From positions 1 through 43,694 of the IMG/VR virus record IMGVR_UViG_3300045902_000713: DNA of 43,694 nt; one strand, written 5' to 3'. A model generated the notes under the pieces. It was given only the letters and a program-made list of their open reading frames with translations, searched no databases and had not been told where the DNA came from. The stretch is from a virus. Positions 502 through 43,694 of this stretch are shown one piece after another (the first letter of the stretch is position 1; each line of letters begins with the position of its first letter). A program made the position numbers and the translations under genes.

Positions 502-534
502 AACAACAATACCACCAAAACAAAGACCAACTAA
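1..534 (+). CDS. Repeat protein of 24-residue helical units, 5' end cut by the window
   Basis: The reading frame is open to the first base, and the residues before the first possible internal start (HQYASDLL) already fit the repeat, so this is the C-terminal part of a longer protein. The visible 177 residues hold six full units of exactly 24 residues plus one partial unit. The pattern is roughly A-h-x-Y-C/A-A-x-L-L-x-x-x-h-L-x-x-C-A-x-x-A-P-x-x. Each unit would fold as a helix pair, giving an alpha-solenoid. Cysteines recur at fixed positions in most units. The tail is Asn/Thr-rich. GC content is visibly lower than in the replication genes that follow. I do not recognise the family. A protein-binding scaffold is the natural inference for a solenoid, but the partner is unknown. 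Confidence 0.85.
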   Translation, partial: HQYASDLLPPNVLETCSLEEPNKAIVYCARLLPIELLERCALHACSEALTYCPDLLSPNLLVKCAWLAPVQALQNAAKLLPQDVLSEIAYEYPAEAVTYAACWLQKGVLEDCAHKAPRESVQYAAHLLSPDVLELCACKAPRTAIECCAHLLPDDLLEKCKRFAGLSNNNTTKTKTN

Positions 535-15575: not shown

Positions 15576-15601
15576 CTCTTTCCCGCAATGGGTTAGTTTT
15601 G
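15571..15601 (+). promoter_or_regulatory. Promoter of the scaffold/capsid operon
   Basis: TTTG at 15571-15574 (overlapping the portal stop), 19 bp, then TAGTTTTG at 15594-15601: the full TTTG-N19-TAnnTTTG consensus, the best promoter match in the window. Start near 15607, with a leader of about 46 bases to the ATG at 15653. Confidence 0.72.
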
Positions 15602-15652
15602 CCGTTGATTAGCCAGGATGCAAATGCCAAGGCACACCCAATAGCAAGCCAA

Positions 15653-17086
15653 ATGGACCCAAACAACACCCCCAAAGAACAACCCCAGCAGCCCGCCGCT
15701 CCGCAGCCCACCGCATCGCAGCCCGTGACCCCAACAGGGGCGACGCCCGCTGTGACGCAGCCAGCCGCCCCGCAGCCAGTGGCCAACGACGCAAGCGCGA
15801 CACCCGCCGCGCCGCAGCCCGTCACCCCGCAGCCAGTGGCCCCAGCAGGGGCGACGCCCGCTGTGACGCAGCCAGCCGCCCCGCAGACCGTGGCCAACGA
15901 CGCAAGCGCGACGCCCGTCGCCCCGCAGCCCGTGCCCAACGACGCACCCAGTGCGGAGTCGGCCCAGCCTGCGGACGACGACTTGCTCGGCAGCCTTTTC
16001 TCCGCGGAGCAGCCAGTGGCTTCGCCACATACGGCAGACCAGGCGGCTGCGCCCCCGCCGACGCCTGAATGGCGCGCCGCTGTTATAAGCAAGTTCAACC
16101 AGGAGCTTGGGGCGTCTTACGAAAGCGAGGACCAGGTAATAAGCGAGGTGCGGCAGCTTCGCGACCAGTTGGGGAGGATAAACACCTTGCCTGGTGGGGA
16201 CGCGTTTGCATCGGCAATAATCGACAGGCTCAAGACCGGGACGATTGACGATGCCATGCACCTGCTCCACGCGGTGAAGGCCGATTTCCTGGACTTTGAC
16301 CCAAACGCCGTCGTTACGGAAAAGGTGGAGCTGGAGGATGGCACAGAGTCCACCAAAGAGCTGCCAATAGGGGCATTCCGCCACCCGCTTGACGACGTGC
16401 TCCGGGCTGAGGCCTATTACCTGTACAAGGACAGGTTCGCCGAAAACCCCACCGACCCAAGGTTCGCATCCTTGGTTGAGCTGCACATAGCCGACAGCAA
16501 GAAGCGGCTTGCCGGCATTGTCAGCCCGCTTGTGCGCCAGCAGGAGGAGCGCAGGCTCCGCGCGGCCGTTCAGGAAACGCACAAGGCGGCCATTTCCGAC
16601 CTAATCAAGCACACAAGCGAGAAGGCGAACGAGGTGTACAAGCGCGAGCAGCAGGCGCGGGAGCGCATAAACGAGCTTGTGAACGGCCTTGGGACACCCC
16701 CTTCGGAGCTTTGGGGGCAGAAGCTGCGCCCAGAAGTGCAAAAAAAGATGGCCGATTCCCTCATTGACCGCATCAAGACAGACCCTGTGGGCTACCTGCT
16801 TGAGCTAGTCTCCGTTCGGCAGCCGGACGGCAGCCTGGCCGTGTCCGCCGAAAAGCTTATGATGCTGGAGGCGGACTACAACCCAAGGCACGACAAAGAG
16901 GGCAAGGGGCTCCGGAACAAAATCATAGCCCGTTCCGCACAGCAGATGGCGGCCGAGCTCGCCATCAAGCTTACCGCCCAAAAGGTAAACATAGACCCGA
17001 CAAAAGAGCCGGACAAAGCCCCCAATGCTGAGAATGTTTCCAATTCCCAGCCTTTCAAGGTGATTGCATCAAAGAAATTGTCGTAA
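15653..17086 (+). CDS. Scaffold-like protein with Pro/Ala-rich N-terminal repeats, 477 aa
   Basis: ATG 15653 (AAATG, A-rich leader) is preferred over an upstream in-frame start that would include the promoter. Residues about 1-105 are a low-complexity Pro/Ala/Gln/Thr region with a 37-residue tandem duplication, then an acidic SAQPADDDLLGSLF patch. Residues about 140-440 are helical with charged heptad-like stretches (KHTSEKANEVYKREQQARERIN). An unstructured head plus helical body just before the major capsid gene is typical of scaffolding proteins. A virion-internal or capsid-associated protein is the alternative. No protease motif was seen. Confidence 0.6.
   Translation: MDPNNTPKEQPQQPAAPQPTASQPVTPTGATPAVTQPAAPQPVANDASATPAAPQPVTPQPVAPAGATPAVTQPAAPQTVANDASATPVAPQPVPNDAPSAESAQPADDDLLGSLFSAEQPVASPHTADQAAAPPPTPEWRAAVISKFNQELGASYESEDQVISEVRQLRDQLGRINTLPGGDAFASAIIDRLKTGTIDDAMHLLHAVKADFLDFDPNAVVTEKVELEDGTESTKELPIGAFRHPLDDVLRAEAYYLYKDRFAENPTDPRFASLVELHIADSKKRLAGIVSPLVRQQEERRLRAAVQETHKAAISDLIKHTSEKANEVYKREQQARERINELVNGLGTPPSELWGQKLRPEVQKKMADSLIDRIKTDPVGYLLELVSVRQPDGSLAVSAEKLMMLEADYNPRHDKEGKGLRNKIIARSAQQMAAELAIKLTAQKVNIDPTKEPDKAPNAENVSNSQPFKVIASKKLS
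15719..15940 (+). repeat. 111-bp tandem duplication in the scaffold-like gene
   Basis: Two adjacent copies (15719-15829 and 15830-15940), nearly identical across the stretch encoding GATPAVTQPAAPQ and VANDASATP, differing at a few positions. Each codes for 37 residues, so frame is kept. It looks like a recent duplication by slippage or recombination in a disordered region. Confidence 0.75.
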
Positions 17087-26639: not shown

Positions 26640-27410
26640 CTAGGTAAGCCCGTTCCTGATGGCTGCGCTTTCCTGCGAGAACCCTTGGTAGTCGGGGGAC
26701 GACTTGAAGTACAGCGCCACGGCCCTGTTGACTATCTCGTTGTGCCTGTATGCGGGGAACCCACAGTCAACGTCGGCTGGCGTGGCGACGTACCCAGGCT
26801 GCGCCGACCAGTCCGATGCCTCCTGCGCCGTGTTCTGTATCTGGATCCCCCAAGGAAGTTTTAGGTACCTTATGTAGAGCCGGTATTTCCTGTCGTTGGG
26901 GTATATCCGCAGCCCGCTTGTTTGCTGGGGGCCGCCAGGGTTTGCGTTATCCATTACCCAGTATGGGGCGTACCAAATTGGCCCCCATACCGGGCGCGTA
27001 ATGGAGTTGCGCAGCGTGGCCACAAGCTCCGAGTCCCGTAGGTATTTTGGTTCGCAGTAAGGCGGCTCCCCGTTGCACCCGTCTGTGACTATCCCCAGCT
27101 CTGTCACGATTTGCAGCCCTTGCGGGAATGGCCAGAACCCCTTGTTGTTTGTTTCCGGGTTCGGGGAGTTCTGCGGGGATGGCAGCGTTACCTCGAAAGG
27201 GGCCAAGTCCGTGGCGAACTTAAACTCCTTTTGGTAGGAAACAGGCGGTGGGGCCTCACCCCGCTTCCCGTGGTCCGGGTACATTAGCTCGTTCCACAGC
27301 TGCACCTGCGCCCTGTCCAGCCACTCGGCCACCTTCCACGTGCGCAAGTCGCCGGTATAGGCGGAATTTGCCAAGTCCAAGAAGGCGTAGTACATTTCCG
27401 TCGCTGTCAT
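26640..27410 (-). CDS. Connector/ring protein candidate (P22 gp4-like position), 256 aa
   Basis: It begins MTATEMYYAFLDLANSA and continues EWLDRAQVQLWNELM, a pattern of connector proteins in podoviruses of Bacteroidota, where an N-terminal helix pair is followed by beta sheets. The end (YRHNEIVNRAVALYFKSSPD) is a helical closing segment seen also in the plus-strand protein at 29918. This suits a head-tail adaptor ring binding the portal. Last gene of a four-gene minus-strand operon. The family call is an inference from pattern and context. Confidence 0.55.
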   Translation of the reverse strand: MTATEMYYAFLDLANSAYTGDLRTWKVAEWLDRAQVQLWNELMYPDHGKRGEAPPPVSYQKEFKFATDLAPFEVTLPSPQNSPNPETNNKGFWPFPQGLQIVTELGIVTDGCNGEPPYCEPKYLRDSELVATLRNSITRPVWGPIWYAPYWVMDNANPGGPQQTSGLRIYPNDRKYRLYIRYLKLPWGIQIQNTAQEASDWSAQPGYVATPADVDCGFPAYRHNEIVNRAVALYFKSSPDYQGFSQESAAIRNGLT

Positions 27411-27419
27411 CCCGTAGCC

Positions 27420-28052
27420 CTAGGTTATTGTGGTTTCGACAAAGTACGTGAAGTGCCCGCGCAGGTTTGGGAAGCTGGTGGATGTGGTGGTGAGGATCAC
27501 CGTCCCGTCTTGCGCGATGGAGTAGGCCCCGCAGTCAAGGGGCCAAGGGGAATTGGCAAGCAGCTGTTTCAGGGACGTGCCGTTTGGCGAGCTTGCGTTT
27601 GTTCCCGTGGCGTATATGCTGCTTGGGGTGAAGTTTGCCCCCAGAACCCCTAGCACAATGTTCACCCCCGCCACCCCGTAGGAAATGAACCCCCCCCTCA
27701 AAGAAACGAATGCCGTGTTGCCAACCCGCCGGGCCTCTATGCTTGGGGCCCCGTTTGCGGTTGGGGTGGGGGATAGGGTGGGGTTAAGGAGCAGTAGCGT
27801 TTCATTTGTGATGGGTATTGTCTCCTCCGCGCTAACAGACTGTACGCACTCGAGTATGTATTCGCACGACGGTTTGTACGGCGGCGGGGCGCATACCCAT
27901 TGCCCAAGGCTGCTGTCCCACAGCAGTATGGATGTTTCCTTTGGGCTGCAAGGGGGTGGGGGGAACTCCCCGCAACAATTTTCCTGCTTCCGGCAGGCTG
28001 GGCGGGCGAAAGGGGATGGGGCCCCACAAGGTTTCTTTTTATGGCACGGCAT
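27420..28052 (-). CDS. Cys/Pro-rich head with beta-rich tail, appendage candidate, 210 aa
   Basis: ATG 28052 (MPCHKKKPCGAPSPF). Residues 1-75 are basic and rich in Cys and Pro, with nine cysteines. Residues 80-210 are beta-type (NTAFVSLRGGFISYGVAGVNIVLG, DGTVILTTTSTSFPN), like the C-terminal domains of phage fibres. Stop and next start are 9 bp apart. It may be a small fibre or adaptor whose Cys-rich head binds metal or forms disulfides. Family not recognised. Confidence 0.5.
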   Translation of the reverse strand: MPCHKKKPCGAPSPFARPACRKQENCCGEFPPPPCSPKETSILLWDSSLGQWVCAPPPYKPSCEYILECVQSVSAEETIPITNETLLLLNPTLSPTPTANGAPSIEARRVGNTAFVSLRGGFISYGVAGVNIVLGVLGANFTPSSIYATGTNASSPNGTSLKQLLANSPWPLDCGAYSIAQDGTVILTTTSTSFPNLRGHFTYFVETTIT

Positions 28053-28082
28053 GGCTGTTCGGTTTAGGTTACGTATGTAGTT

Positions 28083-28541
28083 TCATTTTGGGTTCCCAGT
28101 GTAAACGCCCCCACCCCCATTTGTTGGGCGTTGGGATGTGCCCGCCATCGTGTTGCCATTGCTGGAATGCCCAACATGGCCAACCCCCCCGCATGCGTTC
28201 GTTTCGGCAAGCCGCCTCAACTTGCGCAATGCCTTGGCCACTGGGTGGCAATGGCACGCGCCTGCAAGTATGGCCGCGCCAAGGGCAAGCCCAACGCCTG
28301 TCTGCTGCGTCGCCTTGGCCTTTGGCGTCCACCCCATTTTGGCCTGCGCAACGGCGCATAGGTGGAGGGCGGCGGCGGCTGTCTCGGCCTCGCATACGTC
28401 CTCGTTGCCGCAAGGGGCGCCCTGCGGCGGGATGGTGTGCGATGGGCACACGGGCCTTGGGGCGGCGCAGCATGGTTTGCGCGGTGGGGACGGGCGGCAT
28501 CCGCAAGGGAGCGTGTAGGGGGCGAACCAAATGTTTTGCAT
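28083..28541 (-). CDS. Cys-rich protein with hydrophobic segment, 152 aa
   Basis: ATG 28541 lies 7 bp after the upstream gene's stop, which favours this frame over two other long minus-strand frames in the same place. The first 65 residues contain about 13 Cys in short-spaced pairs (YTLPCGCRPSPPRKPCC). A hydrophobic stretch follows (TGVGLALGAAILAGACHC near residues 81-98), then a basic and Gly/Asn-rich tail. It could be a virion protein anchored in the membrane during entry, or a disulfide-linked appendage. No family known to me. Confidence 0.5.
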   Translation of the reverse strand: MQNIWFAPYTLPCGCRPSPPRKPCCAAPRPVCPSHTIPPQGAPCGNEDVCEAETAAAALHLCAVAQAKMGWTPKAKATQQTGVGLALGAAILAGACHCHPVAKALRKLRRLAETNACGGVGHVGHSSNGNTMAGTSQRPTNGGGGVYTGNPK

Positions 28542-28548
28542 ACCTTGG

Positions 28549-29838
28549 CTAGCAACGGGTTACGGGGGCGCACGGATTGTTTGTCAGGAAGTCCACCTTT
28601 GCCTTGGCCAGCATCTCTTTTGCCCCGTTATAGTCGCCTTCCGCCAGTACCACGCGCACCGCCTGCATCGCCGCAAATATGCGCGCGCTTTCCGGGAAGC
28701 ACGGGGATTCGGAGCACCCGGCGGATTCCTTCACATAGGCGCGCTCAAGCCTTTTCTGGAGCATAGGCATCCACGCGTCGCATACGCGGTCGGATATGGC
28801 CACTTCGGTTTCTTCCCCAACGATAGGCACTGTGCTGGTGGTGATGGAAGCGGTGGATGATGCGGTGCAGGTGGTGCCATCTAAAGCGCATTCCTCTAGG
28901 GTTATGGTTAGGAGGTCGACCGAATAGGCGTCAATGAACGTCTGCGTGAGGTATAGGTACACCCCGTCCGCGTTCGGCGTTGCAAACGCGTCGTCTGGGG
29001 ATGCGCCAAGTATTGCAATGGCGTTGTTTATCCCGGCGGCCAATGCGATGGACGCTTCCTGCACGCTGGCCCCCACCGATACGGGTATGGCCGGGATGGA
29101 CGTCCCAAGGAACCTATAGAGGGTGTTGATGGGGGTGGCGAACGCCCCGTCAAACATAAATATAACCCTATATATGTTTGGCCTGTTGAAGGCGTACGAC
29201 AGGATTGCGCACACAATCGTGTCCTCGTCCACGCATGCCCCGACCGAATCCTCCCCTTCCTGTAGGTTGCCGACGTTTTCGGTGACAGTGGTGGATTCGA
29301 ACGTCGGGTCCGTGCCCTCGCTTGGCTCCACGTCCAGATCGTAAACAAGCGGTATCCCGGGGTACGTCGACCGGATGGAAAGCCAGCACTCGGAAGGGCT
29401 GCACGGCGACGTCCCAAGCTGGAGTTCAAACATCGGCTGGCACCCAAGCGAGTTTAGGGCTTCCAGGTATTTGGCGTACAGCGCGTTGAATATGTTGCGG
29501 ATTGTTTCAATGATGGCCTCCTCCAGGGAGGTCTCCGCATCCTCCGCCACTATATCCGCCTGTGCGACAGTGTGCGTGATAACAACGTCCCCCGCAATTG
29601 GGTCGTGAACCGTTATCGTGTACACCTGCCCAACGGCGTAGGATGTTGGCTGGTCCAGCGTGATTAGCCCGTCAATGGCTAAGCAGTCCACCTGGGCGGT
29701 TGACCCTGTGGTAAGGATGTTGCCGCAGGAGTCGAACGCAAGTATGTTGCGGGATGTGAGCCAGCTTGGGCGGATGTGTGGGCCCGCTTCGGTGACGTCT
29801 GACACGACGAAGCAGCCGCATTCGCCGCCCTGCGCCAT
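28549..29838 (-). CDS. Beta-rich virion protein candidate, 429 aa
   Basis: ATG 29838 (MAQGGECGCF). A GTG at 29874 would add 12 residues (MGAFDC...). The protein has many regular beta segments (YTITVHDPIAGDVVITHTV, LYLTQTFIDAYSVDLLTITL), an acidic middle, scattered cysteines (about 18) and a helical C-terminal domain of about 90 residues (CDAWMPMLQKRLERAYVKES, GDYNGAKEMLAKAKVDFLTN) resembling a tetratricopeptide-like helix pair. It heads the minus-strand operon. A tail or fibre component is likely, though no motif identifies it. Confidence 0.6.
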   Translation of the reverse strand: MAQGGECGCFVVSDVTEAGPHIRPSWLTSRNILAFDSCGNILTTGSTAQVDCLAIDGLITLDQPTSYAVGQVYTITVHDPIAGDVVITHTVAQADIVAEDAETSLEEAIIETIRNIFNALYAKYLEALNSLGCQPMFELQLGTSPCSPSECWLSIRSTYPGIPLVYDLDVEPSEGTDPTFESTTVTENVGNLQEGEDSVGACVDEDTIVCAILSYAFNRPNIYRVIFMFDGAFATPINTLYRFLGTSIPAIPVSVGASVQEASIALAAGINNAIAILGASPDDAFATPNADGVYLYLTQTFIDAYSVDLLTITLEECALDGTTCTASSTASITTSTVPIVGEETEVAISDRVCDAWMPMLQKRLERAYVKESAGCSESPCFPESARIFAAMQAVRVVLAEGDYNGAKEMLAKAKVDFLTNNPCAPVTRC

Positions 29839-29901
29839 GGCTAACTTGGGTGTGGTACAGTCGAAGGCTCCCACTGGCTGTCTTGTTTGGGCGAAGATAC
29901 G

Positions 29902-31848: not shown

Positions 31849-31879
31849 TTGGCAATACTTATATTGCGGTGTTTATTTG
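31849..31879 (+). promoter_or_regulatory. Possible promoter of the large tail gene
   Basis: TTG at 31849-31851, 20 bp, then TTTATTTG at 31872-31879, one mismatch from TAnnTTTG. The ATG at 31884 starts 5 bp after the box, similar to other near-leaderless starts in this genome. Confidence 0.4.
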
Positions 31880-31883
31880 GCTT

Positions 31884-34800
31884 ATGCGCAACATCCCCAC
31901 GCAGACAATAGTCCCAATTGGGGGGATGAACAAGGATTCATCCCCGGAGGTCATCAAGGATGGCAAGTACATCCACGCGGAGAACCTAGTCCCAACCGAT
32001 ACGTTCGCGGACGCTGCCGGCATCCAGGGCGCAGATTACGGGCATGCAACAAGGCTGTCAACCGCCCAGTCGGACAGCCTTGTTGGCACCCTCCCCCCCA
32101 TCCCCACACAGGGCAGGTACAAGTGCTGCTTCGAAGTGACCACGCCAGGCGACCCATACCTGCTTGATCTGACGGTGGGGTTTTTGATTGACGGCACGGG
32201 CCCGGTTACGGGGACGGTGTTTAGCCTCCCGTCCCCGCAGTGGGTGGCTGACTTGGCTGCCATGATTAACTCCGACCCAGTCGTCGGGGAATGGGTGTTT
32301 GCGGCAGAAAGCTGCGGGTGCATAACCATCCGCCCGCGTTCGTTCCGGGTTAAGTCCCTGACCGTTTACTCCTCTGGTGGGTTCAACATAACGGCAACCA
32401 TCACACAGGACGATATCCCAGGGCAGCCGTCCCACTTCCCAATAGGGTGGGGGGCCACCAACGATTACTGGGTTTTGTTTACAACAGCGCCTGAAAACCA
32501 TTTGCCGGCAGACACCACCCCGTTCAACTATGGGCAAGTATGGGTGTTCAAGATAGACCAGGCTGGGGGCGGCATTGGGATCCCCACCACGGATGCCGAC
32601 CTGGATGAATGCGTTGCATACCACGGGGAGCTCAACTTTTCTAGGCTGCACCAGATGACGTCCGTCGAGGTCGTCCCGGAAAGCGACTGCCTGCTGAATG
32701 TGGTTTTCACGGATAACTACAACCCTGTCCGCATACTAAACGTTCTGGACCAATGGAAGACGCGCCTCCTCACCCCAGGCCAGCTGCGCCTTGCGCAGCC
32801 AGAGGCCAAACTGCCACCCATTGTTTTTATGGGGCAGGGAAACGGCTCGTTGCCGCACGGGGCATTCTTTTATACGTACCGCCTCATAGGGACCACAAAC
32901 CAGCGGTCCATATGGGCGCAGCCGACCATCCGCATAAACAACCTGATCCTCAACACAGACCCATCCGTTAACGACTACCAGTACACGCGGGCGTTCGCGA
33001 CTGGCGCGCCAGGCGGCGGCGGGGCCGGGGCCTACGACGTCGGGAGCCCCACAAGCAACAGCAACCAGCTCCGTATCGAAGATGTGGATACCACCTATTC
33101 TGTCGCCGAGGTGGTGTGCCTGTACTGCGAGACGCTTGACGGGCCGCCAACGGAGGCGTTCATCATAGGGAGGTACCCGATAAATGGGCCTATAGTGGAG
33201 TTCTCCCATATAACAATGGATAGGAACTTCCCGGATATAACCGTTGAGGAGATCGTGACGGAACCAATCTTCGCAAACACTGTGAAGGCATTGGCGCAAA
33301 GCCAGTCAAGGATTGTGCTGGGCAACATATGCTCGGGGTACAGCCTCCCGTACACCCAGAAGATTGGCACACAGCCGTCCGACATACAGGTGCAGTTCGT
33401 GAGGCACCGCCTACTGGTAGATACCCTAGTGGGGACACCGCCCCCATCATGGGGGTCGTACCTCGATTACATAAAGGGGCACCCGCTTTCCCTTGCCACC
33501 AACATCCCGGGCGACGACTACACGACGGCCACGCTTGCTGGCGGCTCCCCTTCCATAAGGCTGAACGGGAACAGGCAGTTCCTCGACCACAAGGGGGCGT
33601 ACGTTGAGCATATGCTGCGCGGCTATATGAGCCAGGAGATCTACAGGTTTGGCATTGTATTCCACCTCAAGTCCGGGCAGCGGACGGCCCCCTACTGGAT
33701 TGGCGACGTGCAGATCCCATTGCGGAGCGACGGGGGTGCGACGCTTAACTACCCGCTTAGCGAGCTGGGGCAGTTTAACACGAACTCAGGCCCAATAAAC
33801 GTAGGCTATGTAAACCCAATTGGCATACGGTTCAACGGGATAAACGTTGCCGCCATCCGGGACAGCATAAATGGGTTCAGCATTGTGCGGTCGAAAGCGG
33901 CTGGGCGCGTGGTGATGGGTGGCTTCCTTGACGCAAGGGTTGGCCCCTCGCCCGCCCCAAATAGGCAGGGTTTGTTTTATTCCCCGGACGACGACTCTGG
34001 CGAAGCCCAGTACTTTTTCCAGGACGGGGACTACCTAAGCGTAACCCTGCACCTGGAACTGGTGAACCCACTTAGCATAAGCTACTACAAACATTACATA
34101 AACAGCGAGATAATAGGGTTGGTCAGCGGCACCCCACTTGCGGAGGTGAAGGTCTTCCCCGAAACGTTCCAGCGCACAAACGGGCCGATTGGCGGCTACT
34201 GGGACTACGATGGGACTTCCCCGGGGCTTGGCAGGTGGCTTATAGAGCCAAGCGCGCTGTCGATCCCGGAATGGGACGAGCTAGTTGAGTTCATCCCCAC
34301 CGCCATTTTGTATGGGCGCTCATTTTACGCCCAGGTTATCCGCCCGGTGGTGCCTTTTGGGGGCGACGACGCCAAGGCCCTTGAGGCGACGGAATGGTAT
34401 TACACCGGCAATTACGTGCGAGTCGGGGAATGCTTTAGCGGCGGTGGCGAGTACGTGTATGGCCCAGTCGTGTATGGGGGGGACACGTTTTGCGACCTGT
34501 ACAGCAGGATAGAGACTGTAACCTTCCAGGACAGGGCGGTATTTGCAACACAGCAAGTAGGGGCTGAGAGGATTGCCCCCGGGATATTCCCGACCGAGAG
34601 CCGGTGCAACCCCACGCTGCGGTCCATCCAGGACGAGGCAACGCAGACGTTTGCCGAAATACACGTGGCGTCCCCAACGGCACCGAACCCGCCGTACGAG
34701 AACAAGATGGAAACGCACGCCAACAGGTCGGTGTTCTGGCGCGGGGGGATCGTCCCCCTTGTTGGCGAGTCAAGCGTTGCCACAAAATGCGAAATATGTT

Positions 34801-36041
34801 TCCCCTACTCGATAATCCCCACAGCCAGGAGGCTGGTTGGGGAGGACTACAACGTGTGGCAAAACGTATTGATAAACGACCAGGTCCAGCTGGACGCCCG
34901 GTTCGGGGAAGTGAACAAGATTGCGGCGGAGACGGACGGGAGTGCGGTCGTTGTGGCGTGGCAGGAGAACGCCGTATCCATCATCCCGGTGGGCTCCCAG
35001 CGTTTGTCGTCGGACGGGGCTACAATTGAGCTTGTTGCCGGCAGCGGGACTGTTATAGGCACGCCAAGGTACAAGAGCTTTTTGTATGGCACCCAGCACA
35101 TACATTCGGTTGTGCGAACCCCTGCCGGGTTTATGTGGGTGGACGCGGCCAGGCGTGCGCACGTGGCCCTTGGCACCGACGGGGTGGCCGCAATAAGCGA
35201 GTTTGGCGATATGCGGTCGTGGTTCGAACGGGCGGTGCCCCCTGTCGGCTACATAGACAACCCGGCGTTGCTTGGCGGGCTGCATTCCACTTACGATTTC
35301 AAAAACAACCTGCTGCTCCTTACGCTCAAATACAACTCCGAAGCGCTCGGGCAGTATGGCAAGCAGCCTGAAAACGGGGTAAGCGAATGGACGCTAATGT
35401 ATTCCCCGGCAAGGAAGAACTACCCTGGCTTTTACACCCCGAAGCCGTTTATGTTCTTCAGCCTCCCCGGCAACAGGCTCCTTAGCTTCGACCCCACGCT
35501 TTCGGTCCCCAACCCAATAAACCCCGAAAACCCAAACGACCTGTACAGGCACTTCTCCGAATCCGTGGGGCACCTGTTGTTCTATGGTGCCGCGCCCATC
35601 CCCCCCGCAACGCCTTCCACGCTTTATATCACCCCCACGCCGGCCAAGATCGTCCTTGCCGTAAACGAGTCCCCGCAAGTGACAAAAGCCCTGCAGTCCT
35701 TCATCGCGATGCAAAACAAGGTCTGGAGCAAGTGCGAGGTTGCGACCAACGAGCAGAACCAGCAGCCGCCGGCAAGCCCAATGCTGTCGAACATCCACAC
35801 GGGCAGGTACAGGGGGGCCAGGTCCATGGGGGATGCAAGGCCAAGGGGGGGCAAGTGGTTGTTCCCGGCCCCGCCGATGCTGGAGCGGTATACGGAAAGC
35901 GCGGGCTGGCTGCCACTGGATAGGTGGCAGCCGGTGGCAAGGGGGGAGTATTTCTTTGTAGCTTTGGAGTGCGCCTTTGTGGACAGGCGCGACCTGGCTG
36001 CGCTTGCCGCAGTGTTTGCCCCCATAGCCAACAACACCTAA
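31884..36041 (+). CDS. Large tail protein, P22 gp10-like (packaged-DNA stabilisation/tail hub type), 1385 aa
   Basis: ATG 31884 is preferred to GTG 31869. It opens IPTQTIVPIGGMNKDSSPEVIKDG, the GGxNKD...G.Y signature of gp10-like stabilisation proteins in podoviruses of Bacteroidota, followed by YIHAENLVPTD. The bulk is beta-rich with many aromatic and Gly turns, as expected of a beta-propeller-like plug plus added domains. Near residues 1030-1110 LDARFGEVNKIAAETDGSAVVV and SIIPVGSQRL fit propeller blades. It is far larger than P22 gp10 (about 470 aa), so extra domains may replace separate tail proteins. The operon continues with the ejection-protein candidate. Confidence 0.68.
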   Translation: MRNIPTQTIVPIGGMNKDSSPEVIKDGKYIHAENLVPTDTFADAAGIQGADYGHATRLSTAQSDSLVGTLPPIPTQGRYKCCFEVTTPGDPYLLDLTVGFLIDGTGPVTGTVFSLPSPQWVADLAAMINSDPVVGEWVFAAESCGCITIRPRSFRVKSLTVYSSGGFNITATITQDDIPGQPSHFPIGWGATNDYWVLFTTAPENHLPADTTPFNYGQVWVFKIDQAGGGIGIPTTDADLDECVAYHGELNFSRLHQMTSVEVVPESDCLLNVVFTDNYNPVRILNVLDQWKTRLLTPGQLRLAQPEAKLPPIVFMGQGNGSLPHGAFFYTYRLIGTTNQRSIWAQPTIRINNLILNTDPSVNDYQYTRAFATGAPGGGGAGAYDVGSPTSNSNQLRIEDVDTTYSVAEVVCLYCETLDGPPTEAFIIGRYPINGPIVEFSHITMDRNFPDITVEEIVTEPIFANTVKALAQSQSRIVLGNICSGYSLPYTQKIGTQPSDIQVQFVRHRLLVDTLVGTPPPSWGSYLDYIKGHPLSLATNIPGDDYTTATLAGGSPSIRLNGNRQFLDHKGAYVEHMLRGYMSQEIYRFGIVFHLKSGQRTAPYWIGDVQIPLRSDGGATLNYPLSELGQFNTNSGPINVGYVNPIGIRFNGINVAAIRDSINGFSIVRSKAAGRVVMGGFLDARVGPSPAPNRQGLFYSPDDDSGEAQYFFQDGDYLSVTLHLELVNPLSISYYKHYINSEIIGLVSGTPLAEVKVFPETFQRTNGPIGGYWDYDGTSPGLGRWLIEPSALSIPEWDELVEFIPTAILYGRSFYAQVIRPVVPFGGDDAKALEATEWYYTGNYVRVGECFSGGGEYVYGPVVYGGDTFCDLYSRIETVTFQDRAVFATQQVGAERIAPGIFPTESRCNPTLRSIQDEATQTFAEIHVASPTAPNPPYENKMETHANRSVFWRGGIVPLVGESSVATKCEICFPYSIIPTARRLVGEDYNVWQNVLINDQVQLDARFGEVNKIAAETDGSAVVVAWQENAVSIIPVGSQRLSSDGATIELVAGSGTVIGTPRYKSFLYGTQHIHSVVRTPAGFMWVDAARRAHVALGTDGVAAISEFGDMRSWFERAVPPVGYIDNPALLGGLHSTYDFKNNLLLLTLKYNSEALGQYGKQPENGVSEWTLMYSPARKNYPGFYTPKPFMFFSLPGNRLLSFDPTLSVPNPINPENPNDLYRHFSESVGHLLFYGAAPIPPATPSTLYITPTPAKIVLAVNESPQVTKALQSFIAMQNKVWSKCEVATNEQNQQPPASPMLSNIHTGRYRGARSMGDARPRGGKWLFPAPPMLERYTESAGWLPLDRWQPVARGEYFFVALECAFVDRRDLAALAAVFAPIANNT

Positions 36042-36047
36042 CAGATT

Positions 36048-36947
36048 ATGGTCCCACTCGTAGCCCCATTAGCCATACAGGGAGGCCTTGCCGGGGCCCA
36101 GCTTATCGCCGGGCTGATTGCCGCCGGCACCAACAGGCGTCCCGACCTGGACCCCTTGCAGCGGAACATAGCCGATGCGGAGCGCATAGCGAACTCGGCC
36201 CAGGCAAGGGCCGTTTACGGGTACGACCCGTACACCCGGAACACCTTGCTCAACAGGTACCGTGGGATGGAAAGTGCGGCGGCCATCTCCGCAAGGGAGG
36301 GTGGGCTTACGCCGGCGCAGGTACAGGCGGCGCGCGTCTCCGGGGCGATGCAGGCTGGGGCTGGCATAAATTCCGTCATGTCCCAGGACCAGCAGCTTAT
36401 GCAGCAGAAACAGCAGTACGCGGACAGCGCATTGCGGCAGGTGGCCGTGCCCAGGACGGCGTTGTTCGACGAGGAAACCCGCAGGTATATGCAGCGGGCG
36501 CAGGCCGCGAACGCGCTAATCGGGGCCGGGCTCCAGAACGTCGGCAACCTTGGGCAGGACCTTAGCGACGTCGTGTCCGGCCAGCAAAAGCTTGCGCAAA
36601 TGGCCTCCATGGGGAAGGCTTACAGCAGCCAAATGCTCGACCCAAACTACATCCCGGACGCTTCCCCGCTTGGGAAAATGGATGCGCCGCTTGGCGGGGC
36701 CGCCCCAGCCGCCTACCCACCGGCGTTTATCCCGCAGGACCCGATGGTATACGCCGGCGGCGGCGCCCCCCTGTACCAAGGGGCCCCAATGGCCCCAATA
36801 CAGCCCGCGCAGAACTACTACTCGCAGGATTGGCGGAGTAGCGTGCCGACCGCGCCAACGTCCCCCATATACGCCCCATGGACGAACGCGTCCTCCTTTA
36901 TGCAGGCGATGCCGCTGTGGATGATGGGGGCAATGGGAATGCCGTAG
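36048..36947 (+). CDS. Ala/Gln-rich helical protein, probable ejection or internal virion protein, 299 aa
   Basis: ATG 36048 follows the hub gene by 6 bp. Residues about 8-30 form an amphipathic or hydrophobic Gly/Ala segment (IQGGLAGAQLIAGLIAAG). Residues 30-200 are helical (LQRNIADAERIANSAQARA, AQVQAARVSGAMQAGAG, LMQQKQQYADSAL). The last 90 are Pro/Tyr/Met-rich and probably disordered. This resembles internal proteins that leave the virion with the DNA. It ends tail-to-tail with the giant minus-strand gene, 7 bp apart, with no obvious terminator between. Confidence 0.55.
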   Translation: MVPLVAPLAIQGGLAGAQLIAGLIAAGTNRRPDLDPLQRNIADAERIANSAQARAVYGYDPYTRNTLLNRYRGMESAAAISAREGGLTPAQVQAARVSGAMQAGAGINSVMSQDQQLMQQKQQYADSALRQVAVPRTALFDEETRRYMQRAQAANALIGAGLQNVGNLGQDLSDVVSGQQKLAQMASMGKAYSSQMLDPNYIPDASPLGKMDAPLGGAAPAAYPPAFIPQDPMVYAGGGAPLYQGAPMAPIQPAQNYYSQDWRSSVPTAPTSPIYAPWTNASSFMQAMPLWMMGAMGMP

Positions 36948-36954
36948 GCGTGCC

Positions 36955-39900
36955 CTAGTCGTCCCCGCCGGTCAGTTGTTGGTAGCGCTCCTCCATCTCG
37001 CGCAGCCTTGCCCGCCACTTCGCCACCTTGGCCTGCACTTCCTGGTTGTATTCGTTGAGCGCTTGGGGGTTATCCTCCAGGGCTTTTTGTTTTTTGTAGG
37101 CATCCCCACGCAGCTCGTCGAACTGGTGCTGGATTCTGGATAGCCTGCGCCCGAACGCCATGCGCCATTCCCGCGTCCATTGCGACTTCGGCACCTTGCG
37201 GGCTGCCAGAATTTCGCGCACCTCAGTGGCCGCCGCGCTGTTCATGAACGGCAGCCTTTGCCCATGGAATGGGATTTGCCGCTCTGCCACGGCGAACAGC
37301 CCCCCCGGCCTGTTGGATGCCACTGCGTCGACGGTCTTGAGCGCGGCCTCCCCGGCACGTGGGAACAGGCTCTTCACAATGTGGTCCACATCCTCCGCCT
37401 GGAGCCAAGGCGCGTTTACCGCCCCGCTTATGAACCTGCCGAACGTGGACGCGGTACCCGAAAACCCAAGGTCCTGGGCCTCGCGCGGGGAAAGGCCTTC
37501 CGGCACGAACGTGATTGGCTGCCGGGTAAACGTGTTCTTGTTTGTCGCAACCTCCATTATCGTTTCCACCCCGGCAAGTGTGGGGACCCCCATTGCCGAG
37601 TTGGCCTCCACTATGCCAAGCGGCGTAATGTTGCTCAGAAGCTGCTCAAACACCCTGCTTTTGTTGCCGTGTCGGTTAAGGAGTACGTCTTCCCACACAT
37701 TCACCATCGCCCCAAACAGCCCGAACGGCTTGGGCACCAGGAACGGGTGGCCCTCGTCGTCGTAGCCAATGCATATGAACCGGTTGCGCACGTACTCGGG
37801 TTCTTGCGCCCAGCGCCTTTCGTCCTCGTCGTCCATCAACCCAGCCCCAAGGCTGGCCAGCAGGAAGCTTTGCGTGCCGAGGGCAAAGATCCTGTTCAGG
37901 ATTGCCTTCACTTTCGCTTCGGGTTCGGCTTCGGCTGCCGTGATGGTGCGGATGTCCTTCGCCCATCCCTGAACGGCGGCGTTAAGGAACGGAATGTACT
38001 GGTTAAGCGTCTGGATTGTGCGCCCGGCCCTTGTGAAGTCCATCAACTCGCGGGCCGCAATTGCGGCTGTCTGTTCCGCCTCCTCGTGGGATTTGCCTTC
38101 GTTGATGGCCTTCCTGTACTTGGCCCTGAATTCCGCAACGCGGGTGCGGCCCTCCTGCCGTTCCGCCCACGCATCCCAAGCCGCCCTTAGGTCCCTTAGC
38201 TTCTTGACCGTGAAAAAGGTAGCCTTGCCTGGGCGCTCGCCACGCATCCGCTTGAGCATTTTGTCGATTTCCTTCCGGTTGCCGGCAAGCCCAAACTGGC
38301 CGCCGCCTGCATACTGTATCCTCAGGATATCCTCTTCCAGCTTTGCGTTCCTGTTGACCAGCGTGGCGACCGGGTCGGCAAGCATCCCCTCCGCAAACGC
38401 CCGCAAGCTTTCCGCGCTTATCCCCCTGTCCCCCCAGTAGTGCTTATTCAGGAACCCAAGGTAGCCATATGCATCCGAATAGAACGGCTGCGTGAGCGCG
38501 TCCGTTATTGGGTTGTTTAGGAGGAACTTGAACGAAAAGAACGGGACTTGCGTGATGAGTGCGCGCTGGAGCCTGCTTAGGTACCGTATCGGGGCCAGCC
38601 ACTTGGCAATGGCCCCCTGCCCGGCCATTGCCTTGCCAACGGCCATGTTGAACGTGTCCACCATTTCCTGCGGCCACATCCCCTCGCTAAACTGGTACTC
38701 GCTGCGCTCCCCGCGCTTTATAACGACAAACGACCTATCGGGGGCCCTTGACCCTTTGGCGACCGGCACAATCCCCAGGTCGTAATGCCCACCCGTCTCC
38801 CTGTCCAGCTCTTCCTGGATGCTAACCAGCTCTTTGTATATGTTGTTGAGCGTGATGGCCTCAAGGGCGTCGCGCAAAGACTCTACTATGTTATCCGTGA
38901 ACGGCTTGACCTGCCGGTTGAACGTGCCCTCCCTCCTCATTGTGGATTCCACGTTCTTGGCTGGGTCGGTGTCCGCCCTTACGTTGGTGCCCGCCCGGTA
39001 TGGGGCGCCATCGCCAAACACGGGGGCCTCTAGGTGCTCAAGGAACACGACGGCTGGGCTCATTGCCCCACGCTCCGCTTCCGGCACGCGGCTTTCAAAA
39101 GACGCGAGGTCCTCGCTGCCGCGGAACATAGGGAGGTACTCCTTGTTCCCAAGCCATTCGATGTACTTGCCGTATGAGATGAGCCCACCCCTGTAGATTA
39201 CCTCCAGTATGGCGTTTGCGGCCTCCTTGTGGCGTTCCAGCGCTTCCACCACCGTTAGGCTCTTTCTTAGCTCCGGGATTGAGTCCACCAGTTTGGCCAC
39301 GGCCTTTGCATACCCTGGGCTTGTGGGCCCGATTACCTTGCCGTTCCTGGCCACAGACTCTATCTCCGGCACCCCGTTTTTCATCACCACCTCGAACCCG
39401 CCGCCAAGGTCTATGACGCGCCGCCCCCCAAGCGCGGCGATTGCCGCGGCCCTGTCTTGCCTGTACTCGCGCTCTATCTTTGCGGCCTCGAGCACCTCGT
39501 TAACCCTTACGTCCGGGGCCAGCCCCGTCATTTGCCTGTACGACCCGTCCGCGTTCCGCAGGAGGAACTTCTCCGAATGCGGGTCCATTAAGTTCCTGGC
39601 TATCCTGCCCGCAAACGTGTGCCCGCTGTAGGCGTTTGGGTTCCATTTGGGGTACCCGTCTTCATCGGCTTCCGCATAGTCCCCAAACCCTGCCATTGGG
39701 CTGTATGTTGCCACCGTATCCAGTATCTTGTTGACGGCTTCCACCCTCTTGCCCGGGTCTGTTGCCAGGATGTCCGCCGCTAGGCTTGCCGCCGATGTTT
39801 TGTCAAGGGCCCCAAGGACGGGGTCGTTGGCCACGAAGTTATGGATGGATGCGTAAGTTGCGCCAGGCCCCAGCACTTTGGTGGCCGTCGCCTTTGCCTC

Positions 39901-42900
39901 TTGGCATGCCTTGTTCAAAATGTTGCCAAAATAATGCGGTACCTGCCTTGATATCCCAAGTGCCTGCATTTCCGACTCGAGCGTCGCGACGTCCGGCCCG
40001 GCGATTGGGGCTAGCATATAACGCAGGTTTATAAGCTGCCCTGTCCGGCGGCTCTTTATTGGCTGCTTTGTGATGGGGTCTACTATGCCGTTCACAATGT
40101 TCGCCTCGATCATCCTGTCCGACCCTTTCCGGACGGCTATTGTCTCTAGGCGGACGCGCTTGCCGTTCCCCTTTATGCTGGCCGCGCGCCTTGCCTGCCG
40201 CACAGCCTCGTTCACGCGGGATATGAACGGGCCTTCTTGCGATATGAACTCGAAGTTGAACCTGTCCAGTGCCTTCTTGGCAAATGTGGACGCGTTCCGC
40301 CCAAACGCTTTCGCGTCGCCGGAAATGGCTGCGGCGGCAACTTCGGCAGCCTGCGCCATAAGGCTGCCGGACTTTTCCACCTTCTGCCCCCTTGCGGCGA
40401 TCCTGCGGCTTGCGTCCGCACCGTTGAACTGCCGGACTTTCTCTGCCGCCGCCTCCAGCAGGGCCAGTATTTCCCCCCCGAACGCCTTGTTCGTGGCCGC
40501 GTCGAGCTCCTTTAGCCTGCCCACCACGTGCTCGTAAAGCGCGCTTTGCATTGGCCCCCGCCCTTGGTAGTACTGGGCAAACGTGGGGTTGGTGGCCATA
40601 AGCAGGATGAAGTTTGCAAACCCCTCGTTCTGCGCGTACCGCTTCTGGAGCATGGCCGCAGCCTCCCCCGCCAAGGCCGGGTCGCCGGCGATGCTGGGTA
40701 TTTGTTCCTTTATGATATCCCGGGCTTGCTGGATGTCCAAGTCGCTGGCCGGGTGCCAAGTCGCCAGCCATTCCAGTTCGGCAAGGACCCTTGGGTCGGT
40801 GGTTTCAAAGATCGGCCTGTTTGTCGCTTTATCCTTGATTTCCATCAGCCAATGCCCAATCTCGTGGGCGATGATGGCCAAGGGGGAGTTGGATGGGCGG
40901 GTTGCCCGGGCGGATATCTCCACTACGCCGGTTGGCGTGCGGTAGACCCCAAGGCCCCTGCGCATAGTGGTGCCAGCGACTATCTTGAGATCTGGTATTG
41001 ACACGTTGCGTGCACCCTGCATCCTTGCCGAAAGGGCCTCGAACCCATTCGCCAATGCGGATGCCACCTCGGTTGGCGGGTATATTTTCGTGCCGGGCGG
41101 TGTAGCCTCCTGCTGTATTGGGAACATTGGCTTCGCCCCGGATGCGCCTTGCCCCTTGGCCCCGTACACTTCCGTGTATAGCGGCGGGTCCCCGGCGTAT
41201 GCGTCGTGCGGCGTTTTTGCCCCGGGCTTGCCCACGTTTGATATGGGGGTTGCCCCGGCCCCCTGGGCAAGCGGGTCAAGGCCTGAAATAAGCGCGTTTA
41301 TCTTTTCGTTCCGGGCCCTTGTTTCTTCATCCGTTTCCCCAGGCTTCGGCTGGTCGCCAACTATGGCCCCCGTGTCGACGTTGACCGCCGCCTCCACCTT
41401 TTTCCCGTCCACAATGGCGGAGGCTATCGCCGCGCTTTCGGCTGGCGCTTCCTGCGCGTAAGTGGGCTGTGCCACCTCGACCTCCGCTGGCGGTTCCGGG
41501 TACACCCTTGCGCTTTGCACGTTGGCGGCTGCCGAGCCAAAGGCTTCGTTCATCCGTAGCGGGGTCTCCCTTATGTCGTCTATGGAGGACTCTATGTCGG
41601 CCTGCATGGCGGCCATGTAGGCATCGAGCTTCCCTATGTTGCGGAGTGCGGTTATGAACGCCTGCCCAGCGGGGGTGTGGATTGCGGCTAGCCGCTGGCT
41701 GACGGTGTCCCAGCTTGGCTGCCTGGCTTCCCGCGGGTCGAGCTTAGACATCACGCGGAGCAGCGACTCCAGGCTATCCACCGCCTCGCGGTATGGGAGC
41801 TTGCCCTTTGGCGTGGCCCCGCGCGTCCCCCCAACGTCCTGCCCTGTGGCCGCCTTCACGATGGATTTTGCGATGGCCTGCGCCGTGTCGCTAGTCGCAC
41901 CGGTTATAACGGATGCGTCTGGGTTCTCCGCCCACATGGCAAGCGCATCCGCTATTTCAGCGCGCATAAGCGCGTTCGCTTCCCCAGCTGCGTAAGGGCT
42001 GAACGACGGGCGCAGCTCGGATGCTATATCTTCCAGGCGGGCCTTTGCCACGTCGCTTTTTGCTGCGGACGCAAGCCCCAAGACGGATGCGTACAGGGTG
42101 GATTCGGACGGGTTGCTGCCTGGGCTGTGCCCGCTTCCCCCCATTGGGATGGCCTTTGTCAGGAATTGGCGGAGCATGGCCTCGTCGGCCTGCAGCTTTG
42201 CGGCCGCAGACGCAATGCCATCTATCCCCCCCTTCGCTTTTTTGTAGGCCGATGCGGCGTCCTTTGCCATCTTGGTTTGCGTTTTATCCAGGCTATCCCC
42301 AAACTCGAAAAGGGCCCCCTGGTCTATTGCCGTTGCCTGCACTGGGGCCCTCACGGCATCCAGCGTTATGGATGTTTGCGCCTCCGTTTCCGCCACCGTT
42401 TGCTCCTTCGCCTGTGCGGCGTCCCGCACTGGCTTCCGGGGCTTGGCGCGCGGCGGCCTCGCCCCCCCTTCGGGCTTGGGGGCTGGCGCTGTGGGCGCGG
42501 GCTGGGCGGGGGGCTCCCCAGCGCCTGGCGTGGGGGGTGCCTCGGCGGCTTCCCCAAGCGGCGCTGGCTCCGCCCCTTCGGGGGCGGCGGGGGGCTGTGT
42601 TTCTGGGGCGGTGGCACCCGCCACGTCCGCCGGCACGGCGGCCACGTCGGCCACGTCGGCTGGCGTGCCGGGTGCCCCAGGCTGCGGCGGCACAGGCTGG
42701 CCCGGCTCCATAGTGGGGGCCGGCTCCGGCGTTGGCGTGGCCAGCGCCTTGTTCGCCTCCTCCACCATTTGCTGGAGCTTCGCCTCCCTCGCCGCGACTG
42801 TGGCGGCTGGGTCCTGCAAGCCCGTGCCTTCCTTGGCCAGTTCCTCCGCAAGCCCGGTCAGCCCCTCCTGCGTCATTGCGGATAAATGGGGGGTAGTCCT

Positions 42901-43694
42901 AAGCGCGGAGGCAATGGTTTGCACGTCGCCCCCAAGCGCGCCACGCTGTTCGGGCGTAAGCGCAAGGGGGGCCCCTTCCTGCCCCTGCTGCCGTATGCTT
43001 GCCCCTATATCGTCGATTGGGGTGGGCGTGCTTGCCGCTTGCCTTGGGGCCGTTTCCGTTTCGGTGGGGGTGGGGATGGGAATGGGGGCCTCCCCATCCC
43101 CCCCTGGCGCGGGGGGCGGCTGTGGGTTCAGTATGGCGTCTAGCTCCCCGTTAAGGCGCGCGATGTCCGCGTTGAACCTTGCCCTTTGCTCCGCGTACTC
43201 ATTCCCCTTGCGGGGGTCCATCGTGTTGAACGCCTCCACCACGGAGGCGCGGTACACGGCTTGGCTGCTGCCGGCGCCGAAGTCTTGCCGAAGCCGCTGC
43301 AACCTGGCTTCCGGGGCCCCCTGCGGGTACAGGGTGTTGGCCACCGCCGTTTCCATCTGGTCGAACGCATCCTGCTCCGCCTTGGAGGCGACGGCCCTAA
43401 TGTTGGCTATCTGCCTTTGGATGGGCTCGGCCATCGCATTGCGCCCCACTTCCGAAACGGCCTGCGCCACCAACCCGGCTGTTGCCCTTGGGTCGCCGGC
43501 CTGGGTTGGCCCCACCTCCCCGATAAGGTCGGCAATGCGGGATGCGACCGCTGCGACGTTCCGGTCGGTAACCATGTCCGGCCCCAGCTGCTTTACTATC
43601 AACTCGCGCGCATTGCGCGTGAGGTTCTCGTATGCGGACTCCCCCGGCACTATGTTGTGCTCCCGCGCCACGCTTTCGAGGTGGGAGATGGCCT
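36955..43694 (-). CDS. Giant virion polyvalent-type protein with zincin motif, N-terminus cut by the window
   Basis: The frame stays open to the last base. A GTG at 43671 gives 2238 residues, but in-frame sequence continues upstream, so the true start is outside. Numbering from that GTG: 1-185 helical; 185-235 and 312-420 Pro/Thr/Ala-rich linkers; 430-800 Ala-rich helices; 900-950 metallopeptidase-like (GVYRTPTGVVEISAR, then IAHEIGHW with His936, Glu937, His940); 1000-1650 mixed; from about 1705 a C-terminal region like large polyvalent protein domain LPD38 (KFLLNNPITDALTQ, LNQYIPFLNAAVQG, VPKPFGLFGAMV); then a helical end with QKALEDNPQALNEY. Such proteins are packed in the head and enter the host with the DNA. 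The family match is by pattern memory. Confidence 0.75.
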   Translation of the reverse strand, partial: AISHLESVAREHNIVPGESAYENLTRNARELIVKQLGPDMVTDRNVAAVASRIADLIGEVGPTQAGDPRATAGLVAQAVSEVGRNAMAEPIQRQIANIRAVASKAEQDAFDQMETAVANTLYPQGAPEARLQRLRQDFGAGSSQAVYRASVVEAFNTMDPRKGNEYAEQRARFNADIARLNGELDAILNPQPPPAPGGDGEAPIPIPTPTETETAPRQAASTPTPIDDIGASIRQQGQEGAPLALTPEQRGALGGDVQTIASALRTTPHLSAMTQEGLTGLAEELAKEGTGLQDPAATVAAREAKLQQMVEEANKALATPTPEPAPTMEPGQPVPPQPGAPGTPADVADVAAVPADVAGATAPETQPPAAPEGAEPAPLGEAAEAPPTPGAGEPPAQPAPTAPAPKPEGGARPPRAKPRKPVRDAAQAKEQTVAETEAQTSITLDAVRAPVQATAIDQGALFEFGDSLDKTQTKMAKDAASAYKKAKGGIDGIASAAAKLQADEAMLRQFLTKAIPMGGSGHSPGSNPSESTLYASVLGLASAAKSDVAKARLEDIASELRPSFSPYAAGEANALMRAEIADALAMWAENPDASVITGATSDTAQAIAKSIVKAATGQDVGGTRGATPKGKLPYREAVDSLESLLRVMSKLDPREARQPSWDTVSQRLAAIHTPAGQAFITALRNIGKLDAYMAAMQADIESSIDDIRETPLRMNEAFGSAAANVQSARVYPEPPAEVEVAQPTYAQEAPAESAAIASAIVDGKKVEAAVNVDTGAIVGDQPKPGETDEETRARNEKINALISGLDPLAQGAGATPISNVGKPGAKTPHDAYAGDPPLYTEVYGAKGQGASGAKPMFPIQQEATPPGTKIYPPTEVASALANGFEALSARMQGARNVSIPDLKIVAGTTMRRGLGVYRTPTGVVEISARATRPSNSPLAIIAHEIGHWLMEIKDKATNRPIFETTDPRVLAELEWLATWHPASDLDIQQARDIIKEQIPSIAGDPALAGEAAAMLQKRYAQNEGFANFILLMATNPTFAQYYQGRGPMQSALYEHVVGRLKELDAATNKAFGGEILALLEAAAEKVRQFNGADASRRIAARGQKVEKSGSLMAQAAEVAAAAISGDAKAFGRNASTFAKKALDRFNFEFISQEGPFISRVNEAVRQARRAASIKGNGKRVRLETIAVRKGSDRMIEANIVNGIVDPITKQPIKSRRTGQLINLRYMLAPIAGPDVATLESEMQALGISRQVPHYFGNILNKACQEAKATATKVLGPGATYASIHNFVANDPVLGALDKTSAASLAADILATDPGKRVEAVNKILDTVATYSPMAGFGDYAEADEDGYPKWNPNAYSGHTFAGRIARNLMDPHSEKFLLRNADGSYRQMTGLAPDVRVNEVLEAAKIEREYRQDRAAAIAALGGRRVIDLGGGFEVVMKNGVPEIESVARNGKVIGPTSPGYAKAVAKLVDSIPELRKSLTVVEALERHKEAANAILEVIYRGGLISYGKYIEWLGNKEYLPMFRGSEDLASFESRVPEAERGAMSPAVVFLEHLEAPVFGDGAPYRAGTNVRADTDPAKNVESTMRREGTFNRQVKPFTDNIVESLRDALEAITLNNIYKELVSIQEELDRETGGHYDLGIVPVAKGSRAPDRSFVVIKRGERSEYQFSEGMWPQEMVDTFNMAVGKAMAGQGAIAKWLAPIRYLSRLQRALITQVPFFSFKFLLNNPITDALTQPFYSDAYGYLGFLNKHYWGDRGISAESLRAFAEGMLADPVATLVNRNAKLEEDILRIQYAGGGQFGLAGNRKEIDKMLKRMRGERPGKATFFTVKKLRDLRAAWDAWAERQEGRTRVAEFRAKYRKAINEGKSHEEAEQTAAIAARELMDFTRAGRTIQTLNQYIPFLNAAVQGWAKDIRTITAAEAEPEAKVKAILNRIFALGTQSFLLASLGAGLMDDEDERRWAQEPEYVRNRFICIGYDDEGHPFLVPKPFGLFGAMVNVWEDVLLNRHGNKSRVFEQLLSNITPLGIVEANSAMGVPTLAGVETIMEVATNKNTFTRQPITFVPEGLSPREAQDLGFSGTASTFGRFISGAVNAPWLQAEDVDHIVKSLFPRAGEAALKTVDAVASNRPGGLFAVAERQIPFHGQRLPFMNSAAATEVREILAARKVPKSQWTREWRMAFGRRLSRIQHQFDELRGDAYKKQKALEDNPQALNEYNQEVQAKVAKWRARLREMEERYQQLTGGDD

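What the first reader, a model, noticed from the sequence alone, without database searches (positions are those of the whole stretch)
36955..43694. Giant zincin-bearing polyvalent-type protein likely injected with DNA
Seen: more than 2240 residues on the opposite strand to the tail genes, two long Pro-rich linkers, HEIGH metalloprotease motif after a strand pair typical of zincins, and a C-terminal LPD38-like region. Known: polyvalent proteins of phages and conjugative elements combine effector domains and enter the recipient cell to disarm defences. Inference: the most promising novel system here, a virion-packed protease effector, perhaps self-processing between linkers. The middle 1000-1650 region has no assignment.
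Basis: partly seen in the sequence, partly recalled or inferred. Interest (0 to 1): 0.75.

Follow-up and report, generated by a model that had tools for sequence, protein, structure and literature searches.

The report
Phage giant protein with metalloprotease domain
A phage encodes a very large protein, cut off by the contig end, whose back half is a diverged copy of a widespread 'metalloprotease plus LPD38' unit that closes many giant phage proteins probably packed in the virion and ejected into the host; it is a real but unremarkable new member of the known 'polyvalent protein' class.

Summary
The ORF (36955-43692, minus strand, at least 2245 aa) is coding, but runs off the end of a linear IMG/VR contig, so its N-terminus is missing. 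It has proline-rich linkers, HEIGH with the zincin third ligand (NEGFANF, Glu1023) and a significant LPD38 domain.

No close relative was found, but a scan with related zincins matched 276 phage contigs (80 fetched). Of 86 proteins examined, 83 have LPD38 downstream at fairly constant spacing; the other three are cut by contig ends. A 58-sequence profile of that unit matches the window protein collinearly (hmmsearch 2.4e-44; hhalign 99.9%, residues 862-2220) and explains part of the 'unassigned' middle (about 1478-1700). AlphaFold gives a confident zincin core. In relatives the C-terminal unit has constant length while N-terminal parts vary and carry lysozyme, ART or methylase domains, suggesting payload plus carrier.

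A published LPD38 giant (phage JC1) is abundant in purified virions. N4 vRNAP shares the zincin-then-helical-C-terminus layout.

Best reading: a virion-packed, ejected polyvalent protein whose zincin probably processes it. Catalysis, ejection and target are inferred. New member of a known kind.

The parts
36955..43692 (-). giant ORF, at least 2245 aa, 5' end beyond the contig
   Evidence: coding by codon usage
42982..43131 (-). proline-rich linker 1, residues about 188-237
   Evidence: composition
42409..42741 (-). proline-rich linker 2, residues about 318-428
   Evidence: composition, up to 32% Pro per 60 residues
41503..42345 (-). N-terminal region residues 450-730, no family assigned (payload candidate)
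   Evidence: no match in Pfam, PHROGs, NCBIfam, PADLOC or fetched loci
41068..41502 (-). weaker proline-rich stretch before the zincin, residues about 731-875
   Evidence: composition
40363..41067 (-). zincin (gluzincin-type) metallopeptidase domain, residues about 876-1110
   Evidence: alignments A4 and A8, profile match, AlphaFold core, Foldseek to selecase
40852..40866 (-). HEIGH active-site motif, residues 943-947
   Evidence: H, E, H invariant in 59 sequences
40624..40626 (-). Glu1023, predicted third zinc ligand (NEGFANF)
   Evidence: invariant in 59 sequences
39343..40245 (-). residues about 1150-1450, mostly an extension not shared with relatives
   Evidence: long gaps in the profile alignment
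38593..39261 (-). conserved middle segment, residues about 1478-1700 (Y-x-P-x-x-R motif)
36982..38592 (-). LPD38 region, residues about 1701-2237 (Pfam LPD38 core 1959-2128)
37834..37890 (-). most hydrophobic segment of the protein, residues 1935-1953, in the LPD38 region
   Evidence: global hydropathy maximum; same position is the maximum in 53 of 86 proteins
31869..36041 (+). neighbouring virion structural ('stabilization') protein gene
36048..36947 (+). last plus-strand gene, convergent with the giant gene

Best explanation
A phage-type polyvalent protein. Its C-terminal unit (zincin, conserved helical middle, LPD38) most likely gets the protein packed into the virion and ejected with the DNA, carrying a variable N-terminal payload strung on flexible proline-rich linkers. 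The zincin most likely cuts the polypeptide itself, freeing the payload in the head or after entry. Shown here: domain identity, conserved catalytic residues, predicted zincin fold, and the constant C-part with variable N-part in relatives. Inferred: packaging, ejection, zinc binding and self-cleavage (self-cleavage alone about 0.4).
For: Profile of the unit built without the window protein matches it at E 2.4e-44, three collinear pieces; hhalign 99.9% over 862-2220. HExxH and third-ligand Glu invariant in 59 sequences. Zincin core predicted mostly at pLDDT 80-93; Foldseek to selecase, probability 0.95. LPD38 follows the zincin in 83 of 86 proteins, the rest being cut. HExxH-to-end length 884-1190 aa, CV 0.07; N-part 451-2701 aa, CV 0.56, with lysozyme, ART, MuF-C or methylase payloads. 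JC1 gp69 (LPD38) is second-ranked in purified virions. HTVC034P's LPD38 gene lies between internal virion protein and tail fiber genes. N4 vRNAP has the same layout and is ejected.
Against: No direct evidence for this protein in virions. The gene is antiparallel to the structural genes, while 57 of 60 relatives are co-directional with the upstream neighbour. N4 vRNAP is packaged unprocessed despite its zincin (PMC5512222), which weakens self-cleavage before ejection. Many LPD38 proteins have no HExxH, so the zincin is not essential to the class. No payload identified. The zincin and middle pieces are weak by HMMER when taken alone.
Confidence: 0.6

Rival explanations
1. Ejected as above, but the zincin is an effector that cuts a host protein, for example a defence or regulatory protein, early in infection.
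For: Proposed as one option for polyvalent zincins (PMC5512222); weak profile similarity to M34-type peptidases that act on other proteins; catalytic residues invariant.
Against: The zincin stays with the LPD38 part at nearly fixed spacing, whatever the payload, as expected of a unit acting on its own chain or on packaging rather than of an exchangeable effector.
Confidence: 0.2
2. The zincin domain serves packaging or folding and regulation of the ejected protein, without needed proteolysis, as the N4 C-terminal domain may do.
For: In N4 the region with the zincin is required for encapsidation and the protein is packaged whole (PMC5512222); the N4 C-terminal domain dampens polymerase activity (PMC12633501).
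Against: H, E, H and the ligand Glu are invariant in 59 diverged sequences, which points to metal binding and probably catalysis.
Confidence: 0.15
3. Not a virion protein: expressed from its own minus-strand unit, for example early or in lysogeny, and acting inside the cell.
For: Opposite strand to the structural genes; most relatives are co-directional with theirs. An integrase suggests a temperate phage.
Against: The class sits at the end of the structural block (L002-L009) and one member is a major virion protein.
Confidence: 0.1
4. The end of the contig is a chimera, so the giant gene belongs to another phage.
For: A second, 99.9% identical contig covers window 1-33217 but stops before the giant gene.
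Against: Codon usage correlation with the other genes is 0.96; the junction is two complete convergent genes 7 bases apart, not a broken gene.
Confidence: 0.04

Closest known systems
Phage-type polyvalent proteins with zincin-like MPTase and LPD38 (Iyer et al. 2017, PMC5512222)
   Same: Very large phage protein, zincin with HExxH and a Glu ligand on a later helix, LPD38 (listed there as phage-only), position near structural genes.
   Different: No second enzymatic domain identified in the part available; gene antiparallel to the structural block; zincin strongly diverged.
Zincin-LPD38 giants of isolated podoviruses (Vibrio VvAW1, Shewanella X14, Thalassomonas BA3)
   Same: Zincin, conserved middle and LPD38 in the same order.
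   Different: Annotated as DNA methylase or DarB-like (VvAW1, X14); only about 22% identity to the window protein in the zincin (VvAW1); window protein has longer spacings.
Bcep22-like DarB-like giants (phage JC1 gp69)
   Same: LPD38 at the C-terminus of a giant; shown in purified virions (PMC9144972).
   Different: Carries lytic transglycosylase-like, methylase- and helicase-like regions; presence of this zincin was not checked.
N4 virion RNA polymerase gp50 (PMC12633501)
   Same: HExxH domain followed by about 1100 mostly helical residues; last structural gene; weak profile-profile match of the LPD38 core to gp50 3361-3449.
   Different: N4 has an RNA polymerase domain, the window protein shows none; HMMER finds no homology between the unit and gp50.

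Membership tests
Phage-type polyvalent protein | LPD-type associated domain | tested here: met
   LPD38 above Pfam's cutoff
Phage-type polyvalent protein | several unrelated functional domains in one chain | tested here: inconclusive
   zincin plus LPD38 found; N-terminal part unassigned and cut off
Phage-type polyvalent protein | delivered into the host with the DNA | not testable with these tools
   only by analogy with JC1 and N4
Zincin-like (gluzincin) metallopeptidase | HExxH plus downstream Glu ligand | tested here: met
   HEIGH 943-947 and Glu1023, invariant in 59 sequences
Zincin-like (gluzincin) metallopeptidase | N-terminal helix, three-stranded sheet, active-site helix, ligand helix | tested here: met
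   predicted in that order, pLDDT mostly 80-93; Foldseek to selecase at probability 0.95 but E 0.7
Zincin-like (gluzincin) metallopeptidase | zinc-dependent proteolysis | not testable with these tools
   needs protein
Zincin-middle-LPD38 unit | the three parts in order in one chain | tested here: met
N4-like virion RNA polymerase | single-subunit RNA polymerase domain | tested here: not met
   no such Pfam or PHROG match in the 2245 residues available
N4-like virion RNA polymerase | homologous C-terminal domain | tested here: inconclusive
   hmmsearch negative; LPD38 core profile-profile P 0.005, above 150 of 150 block-shuffled controls
DarB/DdrB-type antirestriction protein | methylase/helicase or DdrB-ParB domains | tested here: not met
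   no such match in Pfam, PHROGs or PADLOC

The most novel reading that the evidence does not exclude
The zincin-middle-LPD38 unit is a general carrier shared by many short-tailed phages, and N4 vRNAP is one instance of it: a fixed C-terminal packaging and ejection part with a built-in protease that releases interchangeable N-terminal payloads.
Probability: 0.25. Interest if true: 0.65.

Novelty: new member of a known kind. Interest (0 to 1): 0.4.

Why it matters
The protein itself is one diverged member. The wider pattern, a length-constant zincin-LPD38 unit behind very variable payloads, gives a testable account of how short-tailed phages may load and release large protein cargo, and points to isolated phages (Shewanella X14, Thalassomonas BA3, N4) in which the role of the zincin could be settled.

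Tried and rejected
Close relatives: single-protein scans found none for the whole protein or the zincin; scans with an alignment led by the window zincin, in the viral and genome collections, confirmed none either. The terminase scan found only a near-identical contig of the same phage that does not reach the giant gene.

N-terminal payload: no match in Pfam, PHROGs, NCBIfam, PADLOC, PDB sequences or among the fetched loci. The Fe-ADH Pfam hit (E 0.025, below cutoff) was rejected as chance.

Fold search with the C-terminal model (mean pLDDT 68) gave only low-probability transporter matches, treated as meaningless.

Pro-Pro idea: the alignment profile is weakly similar to Pro-Pro endopeptidases (E 0.4-0.5) and PP dipeptides occur only before the zincin here (11 against 0). 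In relatives PP per 1000 aa before the zincin is 3.6, against 1.6 in giants without HExxH, but that is about what proline content predicts. Suggestive at most.

Full report
The window is itself a whole IMG/VR record, a linear contig of 43,694 bases. It carries a tailed phage: DnaB helicase, RecT, exonuclease VIII, integrase, terminase and portal by PHROG match, and a 1390-aa virion structural protein that resembles the 'stabilization' protein of crAss-like phages. The giant ORF runs on the minus strand from 43692 to 36955 and is open at the contig end, so 2245 residues are a minimum. Codon usage and GC3 show that it is a real gene of this phage. It converges on the last plus-strand gene of the structural block with a gap of 7 bases. 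A second contig, 99.9% identical, covers window 1-33217 and 5.4 kb upstream but not the giant gene, so the junction has no independent confirmation.

The proline-rich stretches are where stated, with a third, weaker one before the zincin. LPD38 is significant. The HEIGH motif alone would occur in about 2% of shuffled versions, so it needed homology. Direct searches gave only LPD38-region matches in isolated phages and nothing for the zincin. An alignment of the LPD38 region led to 59 phage contigs, about half of whose giants carry an HExxH. One subgroup has the signature of the window: a G-x-Y strand context, HE(I/L)GH, and an EGFAEF third-ligand motif, NEGFANF here. A scan with that subgroup matched at least 276 contigs, of which 80 were fetched.

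In 83 of 86 such proteins an LPD38 region follows the zincin; the remaining three are cut by contig ends. A profile of this unit from 58 sequences, built without the window protein, matches it with 151.7 bits (E 2.4e-44, search space set to 20,000) in three collinear pieces: zincin 907-1039, middle 1481-1532, LPD38 1652-2237. Most of that score is LPD38; the zincin and middle pieces alone are weak by HMMER (conditional E 1e-4 and 9e-4), and the zincin-only profile gives E 0.005. HMM-HMM alignment spans 862-2220 with 99.9% probability. In the 59-row alignment the two His and the Glu of HExxH, the ligand Glu and the Arg of a 'Y-x-P-x-x-R' motif are invariant, window protein included. About 1150-1450 is mostly not shared with relatives.

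AlphaFold on that alignment gives a zincin core with pLDDT mostly about 80-93 (one block at 71): helix, three strands, HEIGH helix, then, after two helices that the model places between them, the helix with Glu1023. Foldseek's best short match in the PDB is selecase, a minimal gluzincin (probability 0.95, but E 0.7), with M61 and M1 peptidases further down. The alignment profile weakly finds M34-type peptidases across both ligand motifs (best E 0.007), and four members match Pfam's ATLF family at E up to 0.01 (best 7e-4). The same kind of similarity was reported for the N4 zincin in 2017. The fold assignment is therefore well supported; zinc binding and activity are untested.

Function has to be argued from relatives. 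From HExxH to the C-terminus, the complete ones measure 884-1190 aa (CV 0.07), while their N-terminal parts range from 451 to 2701 aa (CV 0.56) and, in five of six examined, match tail lysozyme, ART, MuF-C, DNA methylase or DUF3293 families (the ART matches are below Pfam's cutoff). That is what a payload-carrier arrangement predicts. LPD38 giants are virion proteins in at least one case: JC1 gp69 is the second-ranked protein of CsCl-purified particles, with 51 unique peptides (PMC9144972). In Pelagibacter phage HTVC034P the LPD38 protein lies where T7-like phages have the ejected internal protein gp16, between an internal virion protein and the tail fiber (the T7 order is from general knowledge). 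The most hydrophobic segment of the window protein lies within the LPD38 region, at a position that is the global maximum in 53 of 86 proteins, compatible with membrane contact.

N4 vRNAP offers a structural parallel: RNA polymerase, then an HExxH domain, then about 1100 helical residues without known homologues, ejected through the tail (PMC12633501). HMMER finds no homology between the unit and N4 gp50. Profile-profile comparison places the LPD38 core on gp50 3361-3449 with a score above all 150 block-shuffled controls, the reversed alignment and two unrelated alignments. The P value of 0.005 is modest and the comparison was one of several, so common origin is a lead, not a result.

Verdict: a diverged, N-terminally incomplete member of the phage polyvalent proteins. 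Ejection with the genome is likely. Self-processing by the zincin is the most economical role, because the zincin stays with the carrier whatever the payload, but an effector or a purely assembly role is not excluded. The antiparallel orientation is unusual (upstream neighbour co-directional in 57 of 60 relatives) and unexplained.

Noticed in passing
window 31869-36041: The 1390-aa virion structural protein resembles the stabilization protein of crAss-like phages (E 2e-7 over 115 aa; PHROG 28748 at 7e-24), while terminase and portal match no isolated phage by tblastn. The phage looks like a distant, uncharacterised short-tailed lineage.
   Followed up: partly
L010, L011, L012 (contig IMGVR_UViG_3300045922_001042): A second contig of the same phage, 99.9% identical, extends the window 5.4 kb upstream and adds an open frame that reads like a DNA methyltransferase (DPPYEIA motif; L012 3004-4098, minus) and short tandem repeats at its end.
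   Followed up: partly
window 15692-15933: A self-match at an offset of 111 bases (93% and 89% identity over 131 bases) points to tandem repeats inside the ORF 15572-17086.
   Followed up: no
window 1-534: The first ORF, cut by the window edge, is built of degenerate repeats rich in Cys, Leu and Ala (complete copy of 227 aa open frame in L012).
   Followed up: no
L013-L071: Giants that end in LPD38 carry several different HExxH signatures (for example HEWWH, HEALH, HELLH) or none, so zincins seem to have been gained, swapped or lost repeatedly in front of LPD38.
   Followed up: partly
window 26640-29874: A group of minus-strand ORFs without any PHROG match interrupts the plus-strand block before the giant gene.
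   Followed up: no
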